Source of the DNA: Desulfobulbus sp.
GTDB lineage: Bacteria > Desulfobacterota > Desulfobulbia > Desulfobulbales > Desulfobulbaceae
DNA: 5,013 bases
Reading direction: 5' to 3'
Assembly: GCA_028684915.1 (NCBI GenBank)
Contig: JAQUEZ010000373.1
Coordinates: 1-5,013 of the forward strand
Position 1 is the first letter of the stretch; each line of letters starts with the position of its first letter. The translations under genes and the position numbers were made by a program. Below the pieces are notes generated by a model that saw only the letters and a program-made list of their open reading frames with translations, had not been told where the DNA came from and ran no database searches. Positions 1,115-5,013 of this stretch are shown one piece after another.

Positions 1115-1405
1115 CTATTTCTTATCCTCTTTCATCATTTCACCGGGTTTCATGTGATCTTTCGCACCCTCCATCATTTCACCGGGCTCCATGTGGCCTT
1201 TCGTACCCTCCATCATTTCACCGGATTCCATGTGGCCTTTCGTACCCTCCATCATCTCACCGGGTTCCATGTGGCCTTTCGTGCCTTCCATCATTTCACC
1301 GGTGGCCGCCTTTTCCATATGACTGTCCATGTGAGAGCCAGCGAATGTCGCGGCAGGAGCAAAGCACATTATTGCTGCAACCATTAACAAGTAGCGTTTT
1401 TTCAT
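1115..1405 (-). CDS. Exported Met/His-rich tandem-repeat protein, possible metal binder
   Basis: This is a 96-residue protein. Residues 1-22 are a Sec signal peptide (MKKR, hydrophobic core, cleavage near TFA-GS). A short SHMDSHMEKAAT linker is followed by four 13-residue repeats with the consensus GEMMEGTKGHMEP (36-48, 49-61, 62-74, 75-87) and a partial fifth (GEMMK). The mature part has no mature cysteine and almost no hydrophobic residues apart from methionine, so it is probably unstructured. Repeated Met-Met, His-Met and acidic residues are typical of periplasmic copper/silver-binding proteins such as PcoE- or CusF-associated Met-rich proteins. Homology to any of them is not established here. 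AGAGGAGG at 1412-1419 gives a strong ribosome site about seven bases before ATG. It is the only minus-strand gene I support, and it has a dyad over its promoter. Metal handling is an inference from composition. Confidence 0.75.
   Translation of the reverse strand: MKKRYLLMVAAIMCFAPAATFAGSHMDSHMEKAATGEMMEGTKGHMEPGEMMEGTKGHMESGEMMEGTKGHMEPGEMMEGAKDHMKPGEMMKEDKK
1133..1302. repeat. 39-bp tandem repeat within the Met-rich gene (4 full units plus part)
   Basis: CATCATTTCACCGG-type unit starts recur at 1133, 1172, 1211, 1250 and 1289, exactly 39 bases apart. Each unit encodes one 13-residue protein repeat on the minus strand. The two central units are nearly identical, and the unit at 1133-1171 is the most diverged (AKDHMKP). 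The in-frame period means that copy number can change by slippage or recombination without breaking the gene. Confidence 0.95.
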
Positions 1406-1861: not shown

Positions 1862-2116
1862 ATGGTCACTACACATCATATTCTTGCTGAAATTAGCGCT
1901 GGGGTTTCAGAATTGAAAAAAAATCCAATGGCGGTTGTAGGACAAGGAGATGGCGCACCGATAGCGATTTTGAATCGAAACGAACCCGTTTTCTATGCAA
2001 TCCCTGCAAAAACATTTGAGTATATCTGCGATATACTTGAAGATGTTGAGTTACAGGCCATCATCGAGAAAAGAAAAAATCAGCCTGAAATAAAGGTAAA
2101 TCTCGATGAAATATGA
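1862..2116 (+). CDS. stbD: StbD-like (Phd/YefM-type) antitoxin
   Basis: This 84-residue antitoxin is the first gene of a two-gene operon. The N-terminal part (HILAEISAGVSELKKNP, 6-22, then AVVGQGDGAPIAILNRNEPVFYAIPA) matches the StbD/YafN type of Phd/YefM-fold antitoxin. These proteins dimerise, bind operator DNA with the N-terminal half and wrap the toxin with the C-terminal helix and tail (about 52-84: FEYICDILEDVELQAIIEKR and an extended end). Its role is to neutralise the downstream RelE-type toxin and repress the operon. GAGAGG at 1845-1850 is the likely ribosome site, 11 bases before ATG. The stop overlaps the start of the toxin gene by 11 bases, so translation is coupled. StbD-StbE pairs were first described as plasmid stabilisation genes, and in an island they would act against loss of the element. 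Confidence 0.88.
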   Translation: MVTTHHILAEISAGVSELKKNPMAVVGQGDGAPIAILNRNEPVFYAIPAKTFEYICDILEDVELQAIIEKRKNQPEIKVNLDEI

Positions 2117-2390
2117 ATTAAAATTCAAAGAAGAAGCATTTCGTGAATGGAACGCTTTAGACGGATCTATTCGAGAAATTTTCAAAAAAAAGCTCAAGGA
2201 ACGTCTAGCAGATCCCAAAGTACCGAGCGCAAAACTCAGAACAATGAGCGATTGCTATAAAATCAAATTAAGAGGCCCAGGCTATCGACTTGTATATCAG
2301 GTCCGAGACAATGAATTAGTGATTGTGGTTATTGCGGTTGGAAAGCGTGATAAAAATCAAGTCTACAAAATTGCCAGCAGCAGAGTTTAG
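2106..2390 (+). CDS. relE: RelE/StbE-family mRNA interferase toxin
   Basis: This 94-residue toxin has the RelE fold: an N-terminal strand (YELKFKE), two helices (about 11-36) and a beta-sheet core (YKIKLRGPGYRLVYQV, 51-66; ELVIVVIAVGKR, 70-81). The residues that matter in E. coli RelE (K52, K54, R61, R81, Y87) are all present at the same positions, so the toxin should be active. RelE enters the ribosomal A site and cleaves mRNA, halting translation. The start overlaps the stbD end and is preceded by AAAGGT (2092-2097) inside stbD. A terminator follows 43 bases after the stop. Plasmid literature calls the same gene stbE. A ParE-type gyrase poison is less likely given the complete RelE residue set. 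Confidence 0.9.
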   Translation: MKYELKFKEEAFREWNALDGSIREIFKKKLKERLADPKVPSAKLRTMSDCYKIKLRGPGYRLVYQVRDNELVIVVIAVGKRDKNQVYKIASSRV

Positions 2391-2827: not shown

Positions 2828-3070
2828 ATGGATAAGATAAGCGAACTCATAAAGACCATAGAGGGTAATCCCTGCAACGTCAAATTTTCCGATTTGTGCA
2901 AAGTCTGTGAGTATTATTTCGGCAAAGCACGACAAGAGGGCACGAGTCACCGAATTTATAAAACGCACTGGTTGGGCGATCCACGGATAAATATTCAGGA
3001 CAATAAAGGTAAGGCAAAGGCTTATCAAGTCCGTCAAGTATTGAAAGCTATCGATAAGCTAAAGAAGTGA
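2828..3070 (+). CDS. hicA: HicA mRNA interferase toxin
   Basis: This 80-residue toxin is the first gene of the hicAB operon. HicA is a small double-stranded-RNA-binding-like fold ribonuclease that cleaves mRNA and tmRNA. The core (FSDLCKVCEYYFGKARQEGTSHRIYKT, 20-46) contains the conserved G-T-S-H segment with catalytic His41, followed by the strand INIQ (54-57) and the typical end KAKAYQVRQVLKAIDKL (62-78). The N-terminus (KISELIKTIEGNPCNVK) makes it slightly longer than minimal HicA proteins. No Shine-Dalgarno sequence precedes the ATG, and an in-frame stop at 2813-2815 excludes a much earlier start. Translation may be leaderless or inefficient, which would keep toxin below antitoxin. The stop overlaps the hicB ribosome site. 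Confidence 0.9.
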   Translation: MDKISELIKTIEGNPCNVKFSDLCKVCEYYFGKARQEGTSHRIYKTHWLGDPRINIQDNKGKAKAYQVRQVLKAIDKLKK

Positions 3071-3082
3071 GGAGGTACGGCA

Positions 3083-3415
3083 ATGTTACAACATGATCAT
3101 TATACCTATCGAGTTACCTGGTCCGAAGAGGATCAGGAATATGTCGGTCTATGCTCTGAGTTTTCCAGCTTGAGCTGGCTTGGCCAGACTCCGGAAGAGG
3201 CATTGCAAGGAATCCGGCAGGTTGTGGCCGATGTAGTGACCGACCTTGCAAGCAATGGCGAGAACGTGCCCGAACCACTGGCAACCAAAAAATACAGCGG
3301 AAAGTTTCAGGTAAGGGTAACCGCTGACACTCACCGGGCTTTAGCAATCAAAGCAGCGGAAAAAAAAGTAAGCCTGAACCGACTGGTAAGCGAGAGTTTG
3401 GCGGCGGCTTGCTGA
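3083..3415 (+). CDS. hicB: HicB antitoxin with ribbon-helix-helix DNA-binding domain
   Basis: This 110-residue antitoxin has a HicB-type partially degraded RNase H-like domain (about 7-66: YTYRVTWSEEDQEYVGLC, then the TPEEALQGIRQVV helix) and a C-terminal ribbon-helix-helix domain. The latter has the strand KFQVRV (74-79) and helices at about 84-94 and 97-108 (LNRLVSESLAAA). The first domain binds and masks HicA, and the second binds the operator upstream of hicA. GAGGAGGT (3069-3076) is a near-perfect ribosome site that overlaps the hicA stop, with 12 bases between the genes. Antitoxin translation should therefore be much stronger than that of hicA. An attC-like structure begins at the stop codon, which raises the possibility that hicAB is an integron cassette. 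Confidence 0.9.
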   Translation: MLQHDHYTYRVTWSEEDQEYVGLCSEFSSLSWLGQTPEEALQGIRQVVADVVTDLASNGENVPEPLATKKYSGKFQVRVTADTHRALAIKAAEKKVSLNRLVSESLAAAC

Positions 3416-3475
3416 ACCAAAATAGCGAGGTCAATAAGTATTGGAAAAGTGTTGACCTTGTAAAACCGGTTAATA
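3411..3475 (+). repeat. Weak attC-like palindrome at the end of hicB
   Basis: GCTGAAC (3411-3417, six of seven to RYYYAAC) and GTTAATA (3469-3475, five of seven to GTTRRRY) frame a perfect inner pair AGGTCAA (3428-3434)/TTGACCT (3452-3458). The spacers are of equal length, 10 bases on each side. The order and symmetry resemble an integron attC, and the first box overlaps the stop codon, as expected for a cassette. The spacers are longer than usual, the R' core is off-consensus and no extrahelical base is evident. A chance inverted repeat, or part of the TIR gene promoter, is a real alternative. Confidence 0.3.
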
Positions 3476-3479
3476 GGAT
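3452..3479 (+). promoter_or_regulatory. Candidate promoter of the TIR gene
   Basis: TTGACC (3452-3457, one mismatch to TTGACA) and TAGGAT (3474-3479) are 16 bases apart, predicting a start near 3486 and a leader of about 27 bases. The -35 lies in one arm of the AGGTCAA/TTGACCT inverted repeat, so a regulator or recombination-site structure could affect it. A promoter inside the cassette would free the gene from an upstream integron promoter. Confidence 0.4.
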
Positions 3480-3512
3480 AAGATTTCACCGTTAACTCTC
3501 AAGAGAGATCGA

Positions 3513-4331
3513 ATGGATAAGCAAAAAGTTATTGAAAACCTCAATCTTTTCAAAGAGAGACTTACAGGTGAAGTTGTAGAGGCATTTCATACTCGGGGGA
3601 GCGAATTTGGCCAAGAAAGGTTTAATACTTGGCGCCGCAAATTTTCACAGTTCTTGGACGACTATCTGCCTGGAGAGACATCTGTTTTAAATGCCAAGCT
3701 AACCCACTTCATGTTTTCAGTCCGGCGTAGTGAAAGCGATGCCCAAAGGTTTTGGCGTGAAGATGGAGAGACAATGCTGGCATACATTGACTCTTTGATC
3801 CTTGATGTTGAAAACGATGAATATGATTTAAGAGAATCAGATGCCGAAAAAGAGCCAGAAGTGCAGCTAACGCAAATAGAAAAACCCAAGAATAAAGTTT
3901 TTATAGTTCACGGGCGTGACGGAGAAGCGAAAGAGCGTACAGCACGTTTTATCGAAAAACTAGGCTTTGAAGCAATCATACTTCATGAGCAGGCGAGTCG
4001 GAGTATGACTATCATTGAGAAAATTGAGAATTATTCTAATGATGTTGGCTTCGGAATCGTTTTGTATACACCCGATGATATGGGCAATGTCAAAGGCGAA
4101 GCTGAGAAAGGCGAACTTAAATATAGAGCTAGGCAAAATGTAGTTTTCGAACATGGCTTTCTTATAGGGAAGATTGGGCGAGAAAATGTAACTCCGTTAG
4201 TTGAGGGTGCAATTGAACTGCCTAACGATATAAGTGGCATCGTCTATATAAATGACAAAGACTGGCAGCTTGATATCGCAAAGGAAATGAAGGCTGCAGG
4301 TTATGCTATTGATTTTAATAAGTTGATTTAA
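3513..4331 (+). CDS. TIR-like nucleotide-binding (NADase-type) protein with helical N-terminal domain
   Basis: The protein has 272 residues in two parts. Residues 1-100 are mostly helical and Trp/Phe/Arg-rich (ERFNTWRRKFSQFLDDYLP at 35-53), of unknown function, followed by an acidic linker (99-118). Residues 127-272 match the predicted nucleotide-binding TIR-like family (PF10137, related to Cap12/PycTIR effectors). The visible motifs are KVFIVHGRD (128-136), ILHEQ (156-160), IIEKIENYS (167-175), VLYTPDD (183-189), RARQNVVFEHGF (205-216) and IVYINDKDWQLDIAKEMKAAG (243-263). Such domains cleave NAD+ on activation and cause abortive antiphage defence in CBASS, Pycsar and related systems. E213 in the QNVVFEHG motif is my candidate catalytic Glu. 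No cyclase or other partner lies in the window, so it may act alone, with the N-terminal part as sensor. A weak ribosome site (AGAGAG, 3502-3507) precedes ATG. An attC starts four bases after the stop, marking it as integron cassette cargo. The defence role is an inference. Confidence 0.88.
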   Translation: MDKQKVIENLNLFKERLTGEVVEAFHTRGSEFGQERFNTWRRKFSQFLDDYLPGETSVLNAKLTHFMFSVRRSESDAQRFWREDGETMLAYIDSLILDVENDEYDLRESDAEKEPEVQLTQIEKPKNKVFIVHGRDGEAKERTARFIEKLGFEAIILHEQASRSMTIIEKIENYSNDVGFGIVLYTPDDMGNVKGEAEKGELKYRARQNVVFEHGFLIGKIGRENVTPLVEGAIELPNDISGIVYINDKDWQLDIAKEMKAAGYAIDFNKLI

Positions 4332-4335
4332 AGTG

Positions 4336-4383
4336 AGCTGACAAAGCGTTGCACCGGGCAAGCCGATGAACGCGGCGTTAGAT
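4336..4383 (+). repeat. Integron attC site after the TIR gene
   Basis: The order is R'' AGCTGAC (4336-4342), spacer AAA, L'' GCGTTGCA (4346-4353), an inner hairpin CGG-GCAAG-CCG (4355-4365), L' TGAACGC (4367-4373), spacer GGC, and R' GTTAGAT (4377-4383, exact GTTRRRY). L'' and L' pair completely if G4351 is left extrahelical. R'' and R' pair over CTGAC/GTTAG with one G-T. Unpaired spacers and an extra-helical base are the recognised structural features of attC folded as a single strand. At 48 bases it is short for the class, and R'' departs from RYYYAAC at two positions. The expected crossover is between G4377 and T4378. Confidence 0.7.
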
Positions 4384-4942
4384 TTACCCAAGGGATTGAC
4401 TATGCCAGTCTATTTCATAGCAGAAAACGAAAACGGAAATTATGGCAATCTCAGAGTAAAGATTGGGATCAGTGCTAAAATCCAGAGACGCATTAGACAG
4501 CTGCAAACAGGAAGCCCATACGAACTTAAATTGATGGGTTGGATTGAGTCTGATGATGATAGGGAATTGGAAAAGCAGCTACATCAAAAATATGCGCAAG
4601 TTAATACTCATAGAGAGTGGTTCGCATTGGATGCCAGTGACGTATTCGAAGAACTGAAACAGCAATCAACAAGTAGTTTCATTGCAACAAACGATAACGC
4701 ATTTGAGGTCGTCTCACATGATCGGGATGGCGTACCCGAATATCTTGGCGCGTGGCAGTGGGGTGATGTAGAAATAGACGAGTTTTGCCCTTCTTGCGGG
4801 TGGGGAGGCGGACTTGATTACAATGAAAATTACGGTGGCATGAGATGTCTAAATTGCGGGCTAATGGAATCCAATATGTAACCCGCTCTAACGAATAAGG
4901 TTAGATTTTGAGAGCGCAGCGAACCAAAATCTGAACCGTTTG
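4378..4942 (+). mobile_element. Complete integron gene cassette carrying the GIY-YIG gene
   Basis: Taking cleavage after the G of GTTRRRY in the two flanking attC sites (4377/4378 and 4942/4943) gives a 565-base cassette with one gene in the usual orientation and its attC 4 bases after the stop. Only 24 bases separate the left boundary from the start codon, with no room for a promoter. Expression would depend on an upstream promoter, such as that of the TIR gene. No integron integrase is in the window. Confidence 0.65.
4402..4881 (+). CDS. GIY-YIG/T5orf172-like putative nuclease with C-terminal zinc ribbon
   Basis: With the start at 4402 the protein has 159 residues. Residues 1-75 resemble the T5orf172/MUG113 branch of the GIY-YIG superfamily: VYFI (3-6) and VKIGIS (19-24) in place of GIY and YIG, RRIRQLQTGSP (29-39), RELEKQLHQKYA (54-65) with E57 as candidate metal-binding Glu, and REWF (71-74). 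Residues 129-152 form a four-cysteine zinc ribbon, CPSC and CLNC separated by a Gly-rich hairpin. The likely role is DNA binding and cleavage, but single-turnover nickase, homing or defence functions are all possible. AAGGGA (4390-4395) six bases before ATG supports this start. The in-frame ATG at 4366 has no ribosome site and lies inside the preceding attC, upstream of the cassette boundary, so I reject it. The gene is the sole cargo of an integron cassette. Confidence 0.75.
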   Translation: MPVYFIAENENGNYGNLRVKIGISAKIQRRIRQLQTGSPYELKLMGWIESDDDRELEKQLHQKYAQVNTHREWFALDASDVFEELKQQSTSSFIATNDNAFEVVSHDRDGVPEYLGAWQWGDVEIDEFCPSCGWGGGLDYNENYGGMRCLNCGLMESNM

Positions 4943-4948
4943 TTGGAC
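4886..4948 (+). repeat. Integron attC site after the GIY-YIG gene
   Basis: R'' CTCTAAC (4886-4892, six of seven to RYYYAAC) is followed by a six-base spacer and L'' GGTTAGATTTTG (4899-4910). After a 14-base loop come L' CAAAATCTGAACC (4925-4937), a four-base spacer and R' GTTGGAC (4942-4948, exact GTTRRRY). L'' and L' pair over 12 positions with one base of L' (G or the adjacent C of its complement) unpaired, the expected extrahelical feature. The length of 63 bases is normal. The site starts four bases after the stop codon, as does the site after the TIR gene. Confidence 0.75.
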
Positions 4949-5013
4949 AAGCCCGGTGGGCCTCTATAGAAAAGAGCTTTTTGGTGCCGAGGGATTGAAT
5001 CAGGCGGTGGGGT
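4949..5013 (+). other. Start of the next cassette or array flank
   Basis: These 65 bases follow the second attC. They contain a small hairpin GCCC-GGT-GGGC (about 4951-4961) and an AAAAG-AG-CTTTT palindrome, but no ATG and no supportable reading frame. If the array continues, the next cassette gene would start beyond the window. Confidence 0.3.

What the first reader, a model, noticed from the sequence alone, without database searches (positions are those of the whole stretch)
4336..4948. Two attC sites frame a GIY-YIG/zinc-ribbon gene: an integron cassette array without a visible integrase
Two imperfect palindromes, each starting exactly four bases after a stop codon, show R''/R' boxes with exact GTTRRRY cores (GTTAGAT, GTTGGAC), unpaired spacers and L''/L' arms with a single unpaired base. 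Their sequences differ, as attC sites do in old, non-clonal cassette arrays. The interval is a complete 565-base cassette. This explains the tight packing of the last two genes and predicts more cassettes to the right and an integrase upstream, or an integrase-less attC cluster.
Basis: partly seen in the sequence, partly recalled or inferred. Interest (0 to 1): 0.8.

Follow-up and report, generated by a model that had tools for sequence, protein, structure and literature searches.

The report
Integron cassettes with attC-invading transposon end
The stretch holds two mobile integron gene cassettes separated by one genuine recombination site, while the second 'site' is the tip of a jumping gene that inserts itself into such sites, a habit seen here in many related copies.

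Summary
The left palindrome (4336-4383) is a genuine attC on the + strand: E 6.5e-8 with a covariance model built here from attC sites beside integron integrases. The TIR gene (unit 3491-4384) and the GIY-YIG gene (unit 4378-4892) are both cassettes. Each aligns end to end, 80-84%, with copies in other gammaproteobacteria whose neighbours differ. No integrase was seen on the contig.

The right palindrome (4886-4948) is not an attC. No model match spans it on either strand, its unpaired base lies in the wrong arm, and only its first seven bases (R'' CTCTAAC) belong to the cassette. From 4893 to the contig end it is the left end of an IS91-like transposon. Complete relatives (about 2.3 kb; Y2 transposase plus tyrosine recombinase) repeatedly sit at this position, just after the R'' of an attC. 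Their right end, GTTC, plus the target's AAC rebuilds an R'' box. Of 29 right ends, 22 run into an attC by covariance model or fold test. One lies in a class 1 integron on an E. coli IncC plasmid.

attC-targeting IS1111 elements and group IIC introns are known. My searches found one passing remark on an IS91-like relative. New variant of a known kind.

The parts
3491..4383 (+). Gene cassette 1: from G|TTAACT (3491) to the R' of its own attC
   Evidence: 3491-4384 aligns end to end, 81%, with L089 6727-7619, where attC hits lie on both sides; left-end sequence GTTAACTCT.AAGAGAGATCGAATGG shared
3513..4331 (+). TIR-domain protein (272 aa), candidate phage-defence gene
   Evidence: PF10137 CAP12-PCTIR_TIR E 1.4e-38; PADLOC PDC-S35 E 1.6e-85
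4336..4383 (+). attC site of cassette 1: R'' 4336-4342, R' 4377-4383
   Evidence: covariance model E 6.5e-8 (R1) and 2e-6 (R2)
4378..4892 (+). Gene cassette 2, from TTAGAT to the R'' box CTCTAAC
   Evidence: Aligns over its full length with L001 (84%, 515 of 515) and over 1-514 with L002 (80%); similarity stops at both ends (flanks)
4402..4881 (+). GIY-YIG (MUG113/T5orf172) protein with C-terminal zinc-ribbon-like cysteines, 159 aa
   Evidence: PF13455 E 1.5e-17, PF10544 E 1.5e-13; cysteines read from the sequence
4886..4892 (+). R'' box of the interrupted attC of cassette 2 (CTCTAAC)
   Evidence: Shared with L001 and, bar the last base, L002; complementary to the GTTAGAG at the 5' end of the L002 cassette
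4893..5013 (.). Left end of an IS91-like transposon, cut by the contig end (junction triplet AAC 4890-4892 is shared by target and element)
   Evidence: 4887-4956: 77% over 70 bases to L127, 74-76% over 67-69 bases to L128-L130; left-end alignment of 21 sequences
4899..4937 (.).
   Evidence: 90.8% of cells paired, 7 of 12 pairs with changes on both sides (1 of 500 shuffles reach it), covariation score 0.369 against 0.152 shuffled (0 of 500) in 21 sequences; further pair types 13 against 10.4 (20 of 500)
3416..3490 (.). Left flank of the array: no attC; weak sigma-70-like promoter 3452-3479
   Evidence: no attC-model match here; promoter scan 5 found against 3.2 expected in shuffles of 3380-5013, so weak

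Best explanation
The contig carries a short run of two gene cassettes, with no integrase seen, read left to right: TIR with its own intact attC, then GIY-YIG. A transposon of an IS91-like family has inserted into the attC of the GIY-YIG cassette, between its R'' box (CTCTAAC) and the rest of the site. Only the first ~121 bases of the transposon are on the contig.

In complete relatives the element is about 2.3 kb. It encodes a tyrosine recombinase and a Y2 (HUH) IS91-type transposase. Its left end is a hairpin about 265 bases from the 3' end of the transposase gene. Its right end, GCGGCTT(G/C)GTTC, abuts the target's AAC and so recreates an R'' box (GTTCAAC) in front of the remaining attC.

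Shown by comparison: the cassettes, site 1, the transposon identity of site 2, and recurrent insertion at the same point of attC in one orientation. Inferred: that the attC hairpin or its TAAC core is what the element recognises; that HUH-type single-strand insertion does it (the tyrosine recombinase could instead); that the rebuilt attC is still used by IntI, so that gene plus transposon move as one cassette; and that the window's copy has a body and right end like its relatives.
For: Site 1 and the cassettes. All 105 attC hits of model R1 lie on the strand expected from the integrase (16 of 21 loci had hits; 11 of the 105 trained R1).

Transposon end: the search with 4886-5013 matched 10 of 234 genomes; seven matches (G119, G190 x3, G090, G842 x2) span nearly all of 4887-4956. 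Four copies (three in G190, one in G842) share about 2,335 bp at 95-99.5% from exactly this left end. The two ORFs are PF00589 and PF04986+PF14319.

Junctions: 34 distinct left ends, 28 with T before AAC, against 724 of 3989 AAC triplets in sampled loci. Of 29 right ends (30 found, one spurious, L143 + 4248), 27 are followed by AA.

attC on the right: a model hit starts exactly at the rebuilt R'' in 14 of 29 right ends at E <= 0.2 (10, 4), all 14 reading the same way. The fold test passes 21 of 29 at the 5% level of background. By either test 22 of 29.

Named case: E. coli plasmid RCS41_p, NZ_LT985243, element between aadA1 and the rest of its attC, with qacEdelta1 next; model hit E 5.1e-6 at the right junction.

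More distant IS91 relatives (33-39% identity, 7 loci): 0 attC hits in their flanks.
Against: The transposase, the right end and the rest of the attC are not on the contig. Not every copy is in an attC: 7 of 29 right ends pass neither test. L150 (two ends), L153 and L176 look like other targets; L145 (5.9% of background), L143 (7.8%) and L186 (10%) narrowly miss. The 5% level alone would pass one or two of 29 by chance. Ends were found by motifs that include AAC, so AAC itself is conserved partly by construction. The window's own left end is only 74-77% like the relatives used. The copies come mostly from a few genomes (G190, G869, G884), so they are not all independent. Both covariance models were made here from integron arrays, mostly of one order, not IntegronFinder's model, and probably miss some attC types. 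The distant-relative control comes from other bacterial groups, so lack of attC there may partly reflect lack of integrons.
Confidence: 0.88

Rival explanations
1. Both palindromes are ordinary attC sites of an array; site 2 is an atypical but working attC.
For: R''-like CTCTAAC and GTTGGAC fit or nearly fit the core motifs; the palindrome exceeds shuffles; GIY-YIG similarity ends exactly at the R''.
Against: No model match spans it. Sequence downstream of the supposed R' is conserved in unrelated places (AAGCCCGG), whereas beyond a true R' lies the next cassette. The bulge is in the other arm. The homologous ends belong to a 2.3 kb transposon.
Confidence: 0.03
2. Site 2 is an attC in inverted orientation next to the GIY-YIG cassette.
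For: On the minus strand it starts CCAACAAACGG, has the extra base in the 5' arm and a CGCTGCGCTC centre; that motif is on the top strand in 10 of 105 attCs and the bottom strand in 0; 19 of 19 bases match an Amphritea attC centre on the opposite strand.
Against: No model match spans it on the minus strand either; the transposon left-end family explains all of it, including bases beyond the palindrome.
Confidence: 0.03
3. The element is placed in attC by a tyrosine recombinase (its own or IntI) acting at AA|C, not by the Y2 transposase: both junctions carry AAC, and a circle joined at its ends would hold GTTCAAC, an R''-like core site.
For: AAC at both ends in nearly all copies, though the motif search favours it; a tyrosine recombinase gene is in the element.
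Against: IS91-type elements generally insert at tetranucleotides (recalled); the seven more distant relatives also carry both genes but show no attC in their flanks.
Confidence: 0.25
4. The cassettes were inserted outside any integron at a secondary (attG-like) site rather than left over from a lost integron.
For: No attC left of 3491 and no integrase seen; a relative of the GIY-YIG cassette sits in a fatty acid isomerase gene in L003 with G|TT at both ends.
Against: The left flank could equally be a decayed attI; no empty site was found.
Confidence: 0.4

Closest known systems
IS1111-attC insertion sequences (ISKpn4, ISPst6; Post & Hall, Tetu & Holmes; seen only as cited in passages of PMC11187229)
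   Same: Insertion sequences that target one end of attC sites of gene cassettes
   Different: DEDD transposase guided by a seekRNA (abstract start), no HUH transposase; here Y2/IS91 plus tyrosine recombinase, hairpin left end, rebuilt R''
Group IIC-attC introns (passages of PMC8876359)
   Same: Insert at attC and split a gene from its attC
   Different: Group II introns, not DNA transposons with a transposase
IS91 family, and ISShvi3 in a Shewanella integron (passages of PMC9229058)
   Same: Same transposase family; [quoted passage not shown]
   Different: That paper's analysis detected no IS interrupting attC; the passages draw no attC-targeting rule. Whether ISShvi3 belongs to this subfamily was not tested
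[quoted passage not shown]
   Same: A hairpin-ended single-strand HUH element beside an attC array
   Different: Different family, one case, next to rather than inside an attC
[quoted passage not shown]
   Same: Cassettes with attC, no integrase seen nearby
   Different: Only one intact attC here; IntegronFinder 2 asks for two by default

Membership tests
attC site (site 1) | R''/R' and L''/L' imperfect palindrome with extrahelical base, GTTRRRY R' box | tested here: met
   E 6.5e-8 and 2e-6; R' GTTAGAT; extra base in 5' arm (alignment, sequence); R'' AGCTGAC is off consensus
attC site (site 2) | Covariance-model match spanning the site | tested here: not met
   nothing spanning 4886-4948 on either strand
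Integron gene cassette | Unit bounded by G|TT and attC, moving independently of neighbours | tested here: met
   TIR and GIY-YIG units align end to end in different contexts
Integron | intI gene and attI | tested here: inconclusive
   no integrase among the eight predicted proteins of the contig scanned with Pfam; the contig is 5013 bases, so an integrase beyond it is not excluded; attI not testable
CALIN | At least two attC sites without integrase (IntegronFinder 2 default) | tested here: not met
   one attC by model; a second interrupted after its R''
IS91-like transposon (window copy) | Y2_Tnp transposase gene | not testable with these tools
   contig ends before the gene; left end homologous to copies that have it
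IS91-like transposon (relatives) | Y2_Tnp and zinc-binding domains | tested here: met
   PF04986 E 1.5e-44, PF14319 E 6.3e-26 in the L137 copy
attC-targeting element | Recurrent insertion at the same point and orientation in different attC sites | tested here: met
   22 of 29 right ends by model or fold test; 28 of 34 left ends at TAAC; copies not all independent
IS1111-attC | DEDD transposase | tested here: not met
   the two ORFs of the L137 copy give PF00589, PF13495, PF04986, PF14319 and a weak PF08751 only

The most novel reading that the evidence does not exclude
A family of IS91-like HUH transposons has become an integron parasite. It enters attC between R'' and L'', its right end carries a replacement R'' box so that the attC stays usable, and the gene-plus-transposon unit (or the transposon alone, if its hairpin left end with GTTGRAC serves as a pseudo-attC) then travels as an ordinary cassette through any integron integrase.
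Probability: 0.35. Interest if true: 0.8.

Novelty: new variant of a known kind. Interest (0 to 1): 0.62.

Why it matters
Integrons spread genes among bacteria, including resistance genes, and attC sites are their currency. A further type of element that invades attC, after IS1111-attC and group IIC introns, and that appears to leave the site rebuilt, would change how cassettes are bounded, expressed and moved. It would also be a source of false attC readings. One copy already sits in a class 1 integron on an E. coli IncC plasmid. The pair of cassettes also links a candidate phage-defence TIR gene to cassette mobility.

Tried and rejected
Site 2 as a + attC, then as an inverted attC: both tested and dropped once its relatives proved to be transposon ends. 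tRNA and Rfam scans of the window: nothing. Window 4880-5013 in plasmids: no match. Left end of the G190 element in E. coli genomes: no match. The E. coli plasmid element: its own record plus a 249-base piece in Shewanella among plasmids, none in the complete E. coli genomes. HicB relatives gave no empty site for the left flank. Fourteen viral-contig loci (9 with TIR, 5 with GIY-YIG relatives): no attC match at E <= 0.5, so the TIR family is not always cassette-borne. GIY-YIG relatives L004 and L005 (60% and 51%): no attC match at E <= 1. Distant IS91 relatives as a control: 0 of 7 loci with attC. PDC-S35 is named in no paper of the library. Literature searches for IS91 with attC; the ISShvi3 remark was the closest passage found; the papers I opened were seen for passages only.

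Full report
What was claimed. The window appears to be a whole 5013-base contig (one search lists the TIR protein on a contig of that length; no genome is held), so nothing to either side can be read.

A yardstick for attC. IntegronFinder's model is not available here, so I built one. Integron integrases (TIGR02249) were found in the genomes bearing GIY-YIG relatives and in others of the order of G001, and the DNA on the attI side was fetched. A rule-based scan gave 154 sites, 109 of them in dense runs, some of which are look-alikes. Eleven short ones made model R1. R1 found 105 sites in 16 of 21 loci, every one on the strand expected from the integrase, and these made model R2.

Site 1 is an attC. 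Window 4336-4383 + scores 36.3 bits, E 6.5e-8 with R1 and 30.2 bits, E 2e-6 with R2. It is a short form (48 bases) with an off-consensus R''. A near twin occurs in an integrase-linked array (L058 4764-4811), and a closely similar site follows the TIR gene in L089 (7572-7618, E 1.7e-7).

Both genes are cassettes. The unit 3491-4384 aligns from first to last base with L089 6727-7619 (81%), where attC hits lie on both sides and a different gene follows. The unit 4378-4892 aligns over its full length with L001 (Amphritea atlantica, 84%) and to one base short of it with L002 (Vreelandella glaciei, 80%), with different neighbours. L001 has a model attC just upstream (E 1.4e-8); L002 has none close by; L004 and L005 (60% and 51%) have none at all. 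More distant GIY-YIG relatives in L003, L090 and L091 have model attC hits nearby. None of six cassette relatives examined lies beside an integrase: G806 and G742 have no TIGR02249 match at E 1e-40; in G001 and G002 the matches are on other contigs; in G003 and G751 the best ones are about 1.45 and 0.9 Mb away. The TIR protein matches PF10137 and PADLOC PDC-S35, a candidate defence family. Relatives at 83% or more are listed from very different hosts.

Site 2 is not an attC. With filters off neither model finds a match spanning 4886-4948 on either strand, even when only 144 bases are searched. The extra base is in the 3' arm; in the dense runs it is in the 5' arm in 91 of 109. I first thought of an inverted attC, because the minus strand shows AACAAAC, the 5' bulge and the CGCTGCGCTC motif, but the model rejects that as well.

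What site 2 is. A search of 234 genomes with 4886-5013 matched 10; seven matches cover nearly all of 4887-4956, three of them in G190 and two in G842. The similarity runs beyond the supposed R' box. Aligning the surroundings showed that everything to the right of AAC is one unit, about 2,335 bp at 95-99.5% in four copies (three in G190, one in G842), while the left flanks differ. The unit encodes a tyrosine recombinase (PF00589) and an IS91-type transposase (PF04986, PF14319). So 4893-5013 is the left end of such a transposon. The window's copy is 74-77% identical to four relatives over 67-70 bases. The hairpin is supported by covariation in 21 aligned left ends: 90.8% of cells paired (0 of 500 shuffles), 7 of 12 pairs change on both sides (1 of 500), covariation score 0.369 (0 of 500), further pair types 13 (20 of 500); slid controls pair 29-49%.

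Where the family inserts. After the right end (GCGGCTT(G/C)GTTC) usually comes AACAA plus the remainder of an attC. The transposase was sought in 232 genomes (10 with E <= 1e-60, 25 matches) and in plasmids (40 of 3636 records listed; the six closest, H47-H52, were fetched). In all, 34 distinct left ends were found, 28 with T before AAC, against 724 of 3989 AAC triplets in sampled loci. Thirty right ends were found; one (L143 + 4248) is spurious; 27 of the other 29 are followed by AA. AAC itself was part of the search motifs. A model hit begins exactly at the R'' formed by the transposon's GTTC and the target's AAC in 14 of 29: 10 of 21 right ends in the genomes, 4 of 6 in plasmid loci L173-L177, none in L143 or L186. 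E is below 0.01 in 12 of the 14 and 0.098 and 0.2 in two. A fold test against 271 background AACAA anchors passes, at 5%, 16 of the 21 (its 22 rows contain one copy twice) and 5 of the other 8. By either test 22 of 29. Failures: both ends of L150, L153, L176, and more narrowly L145 (5.9%), L143 (7.8%) and L186 (10%). Seven loci of more distant IS91 relatives (33-39% identity), each with both genes, have no attC hit in their flanks. Shewanella L178, which holds a left end only, has an attC one gene away on its left side.

A named case is E. coli plasmid RCS41_p (NZ_LT985243, IncC). The element sits in a class 1 integron between aadA1 and the rest of that cassette's attC, next to qacEdelta1. The left flank ends TCTAAC and an attC hit (E 5.1e-6) starts at the rebuilt R''. 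I described this and did not join the flanks.

Mechanism. Shown: one insertion point, one orientation in the 14 model-supported cases, AAC at both ends, a right end that supplies GTTC and so a new RYYYAAC box, a structured left end. Inferred: HUH-type single-strand insertion guided by the attC hairpin or its TAAC core. IS91 is recalled to use tetranucleotide targets next to its origin end; TAAC would be the counterpart. A tyrosine recombinase acting at AA|C is a serious rival. Also inferred is that the rebuilt attC still works, so that gene plus transposon can move as one cassette.

Known or new. IS1111-attC elements and group IIC-attC introns are established (passages seen in PMC11187229, PMC8876359, PMC9229058). 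[quoted passage not shown] an IS200/IS605 element beside a CALIN is also reported (PMC7923331). Searches of the held open-access library showed nothing closer in their listings; subscription papers and ISfinder were not available.

Noticed in passing
L003 9940-10900: In the Lamellibrachia endosymbiont a GIY-YIG cassette (with a second ORF) sits with G|TT at both ends next to a fatty acid cis/trans isomerase sequence (Pfam CTI only downstream, in part), apparently inside that gene: a natural cassette insertion outside an integron.
   Followed up: partly
window 3513-4331: TIR protein matches PADLOC PDC-S35; relatives at 83-89% are listed from an Ignavibacteria MAG, Photobacterium, Pectobacterium, Serratia, Billgrantia, Enterobacter and others.
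   Followed up: partly
window 1862-2390 and 2828-3415: Two toxin-antitoxin-like gene pairs (PhdYefM, below its cut-off, with ParE; and a HicAB-like pair) lie left of the cassettes (HicA by eye).
   Followed up: no
window about 990-1050 and 2505-2530: Stretches on the minus strand that look like tRNA-Leu and tmRNA 3' ends (by eye; ARAGORN finds no gene), suggesting a genomic island with old attachment sites.
   Followed up: no
L089 6650-10346: Four attC hits (one at E 0.0055) around the TIR cassette in a genome with no integron integrase match at 1e-40.
   Followed up: partly
L150 1204-1300: A transposon right end followed about 10 bases later by a left end: tandem or nested copies of the element.
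   Followed up: no
L143 about 3380-4389: A shortened copy of the element (about 1 kb between ends, fragments of both genes only); its left end is among those sharing GTTGGACAAGCCCGG with the window.
   Followed up: no
window 1115-1405 (-): Small secreted-looking protein with several near-identical GEMMEGTKGHMEP repeats.
   Followed up: no
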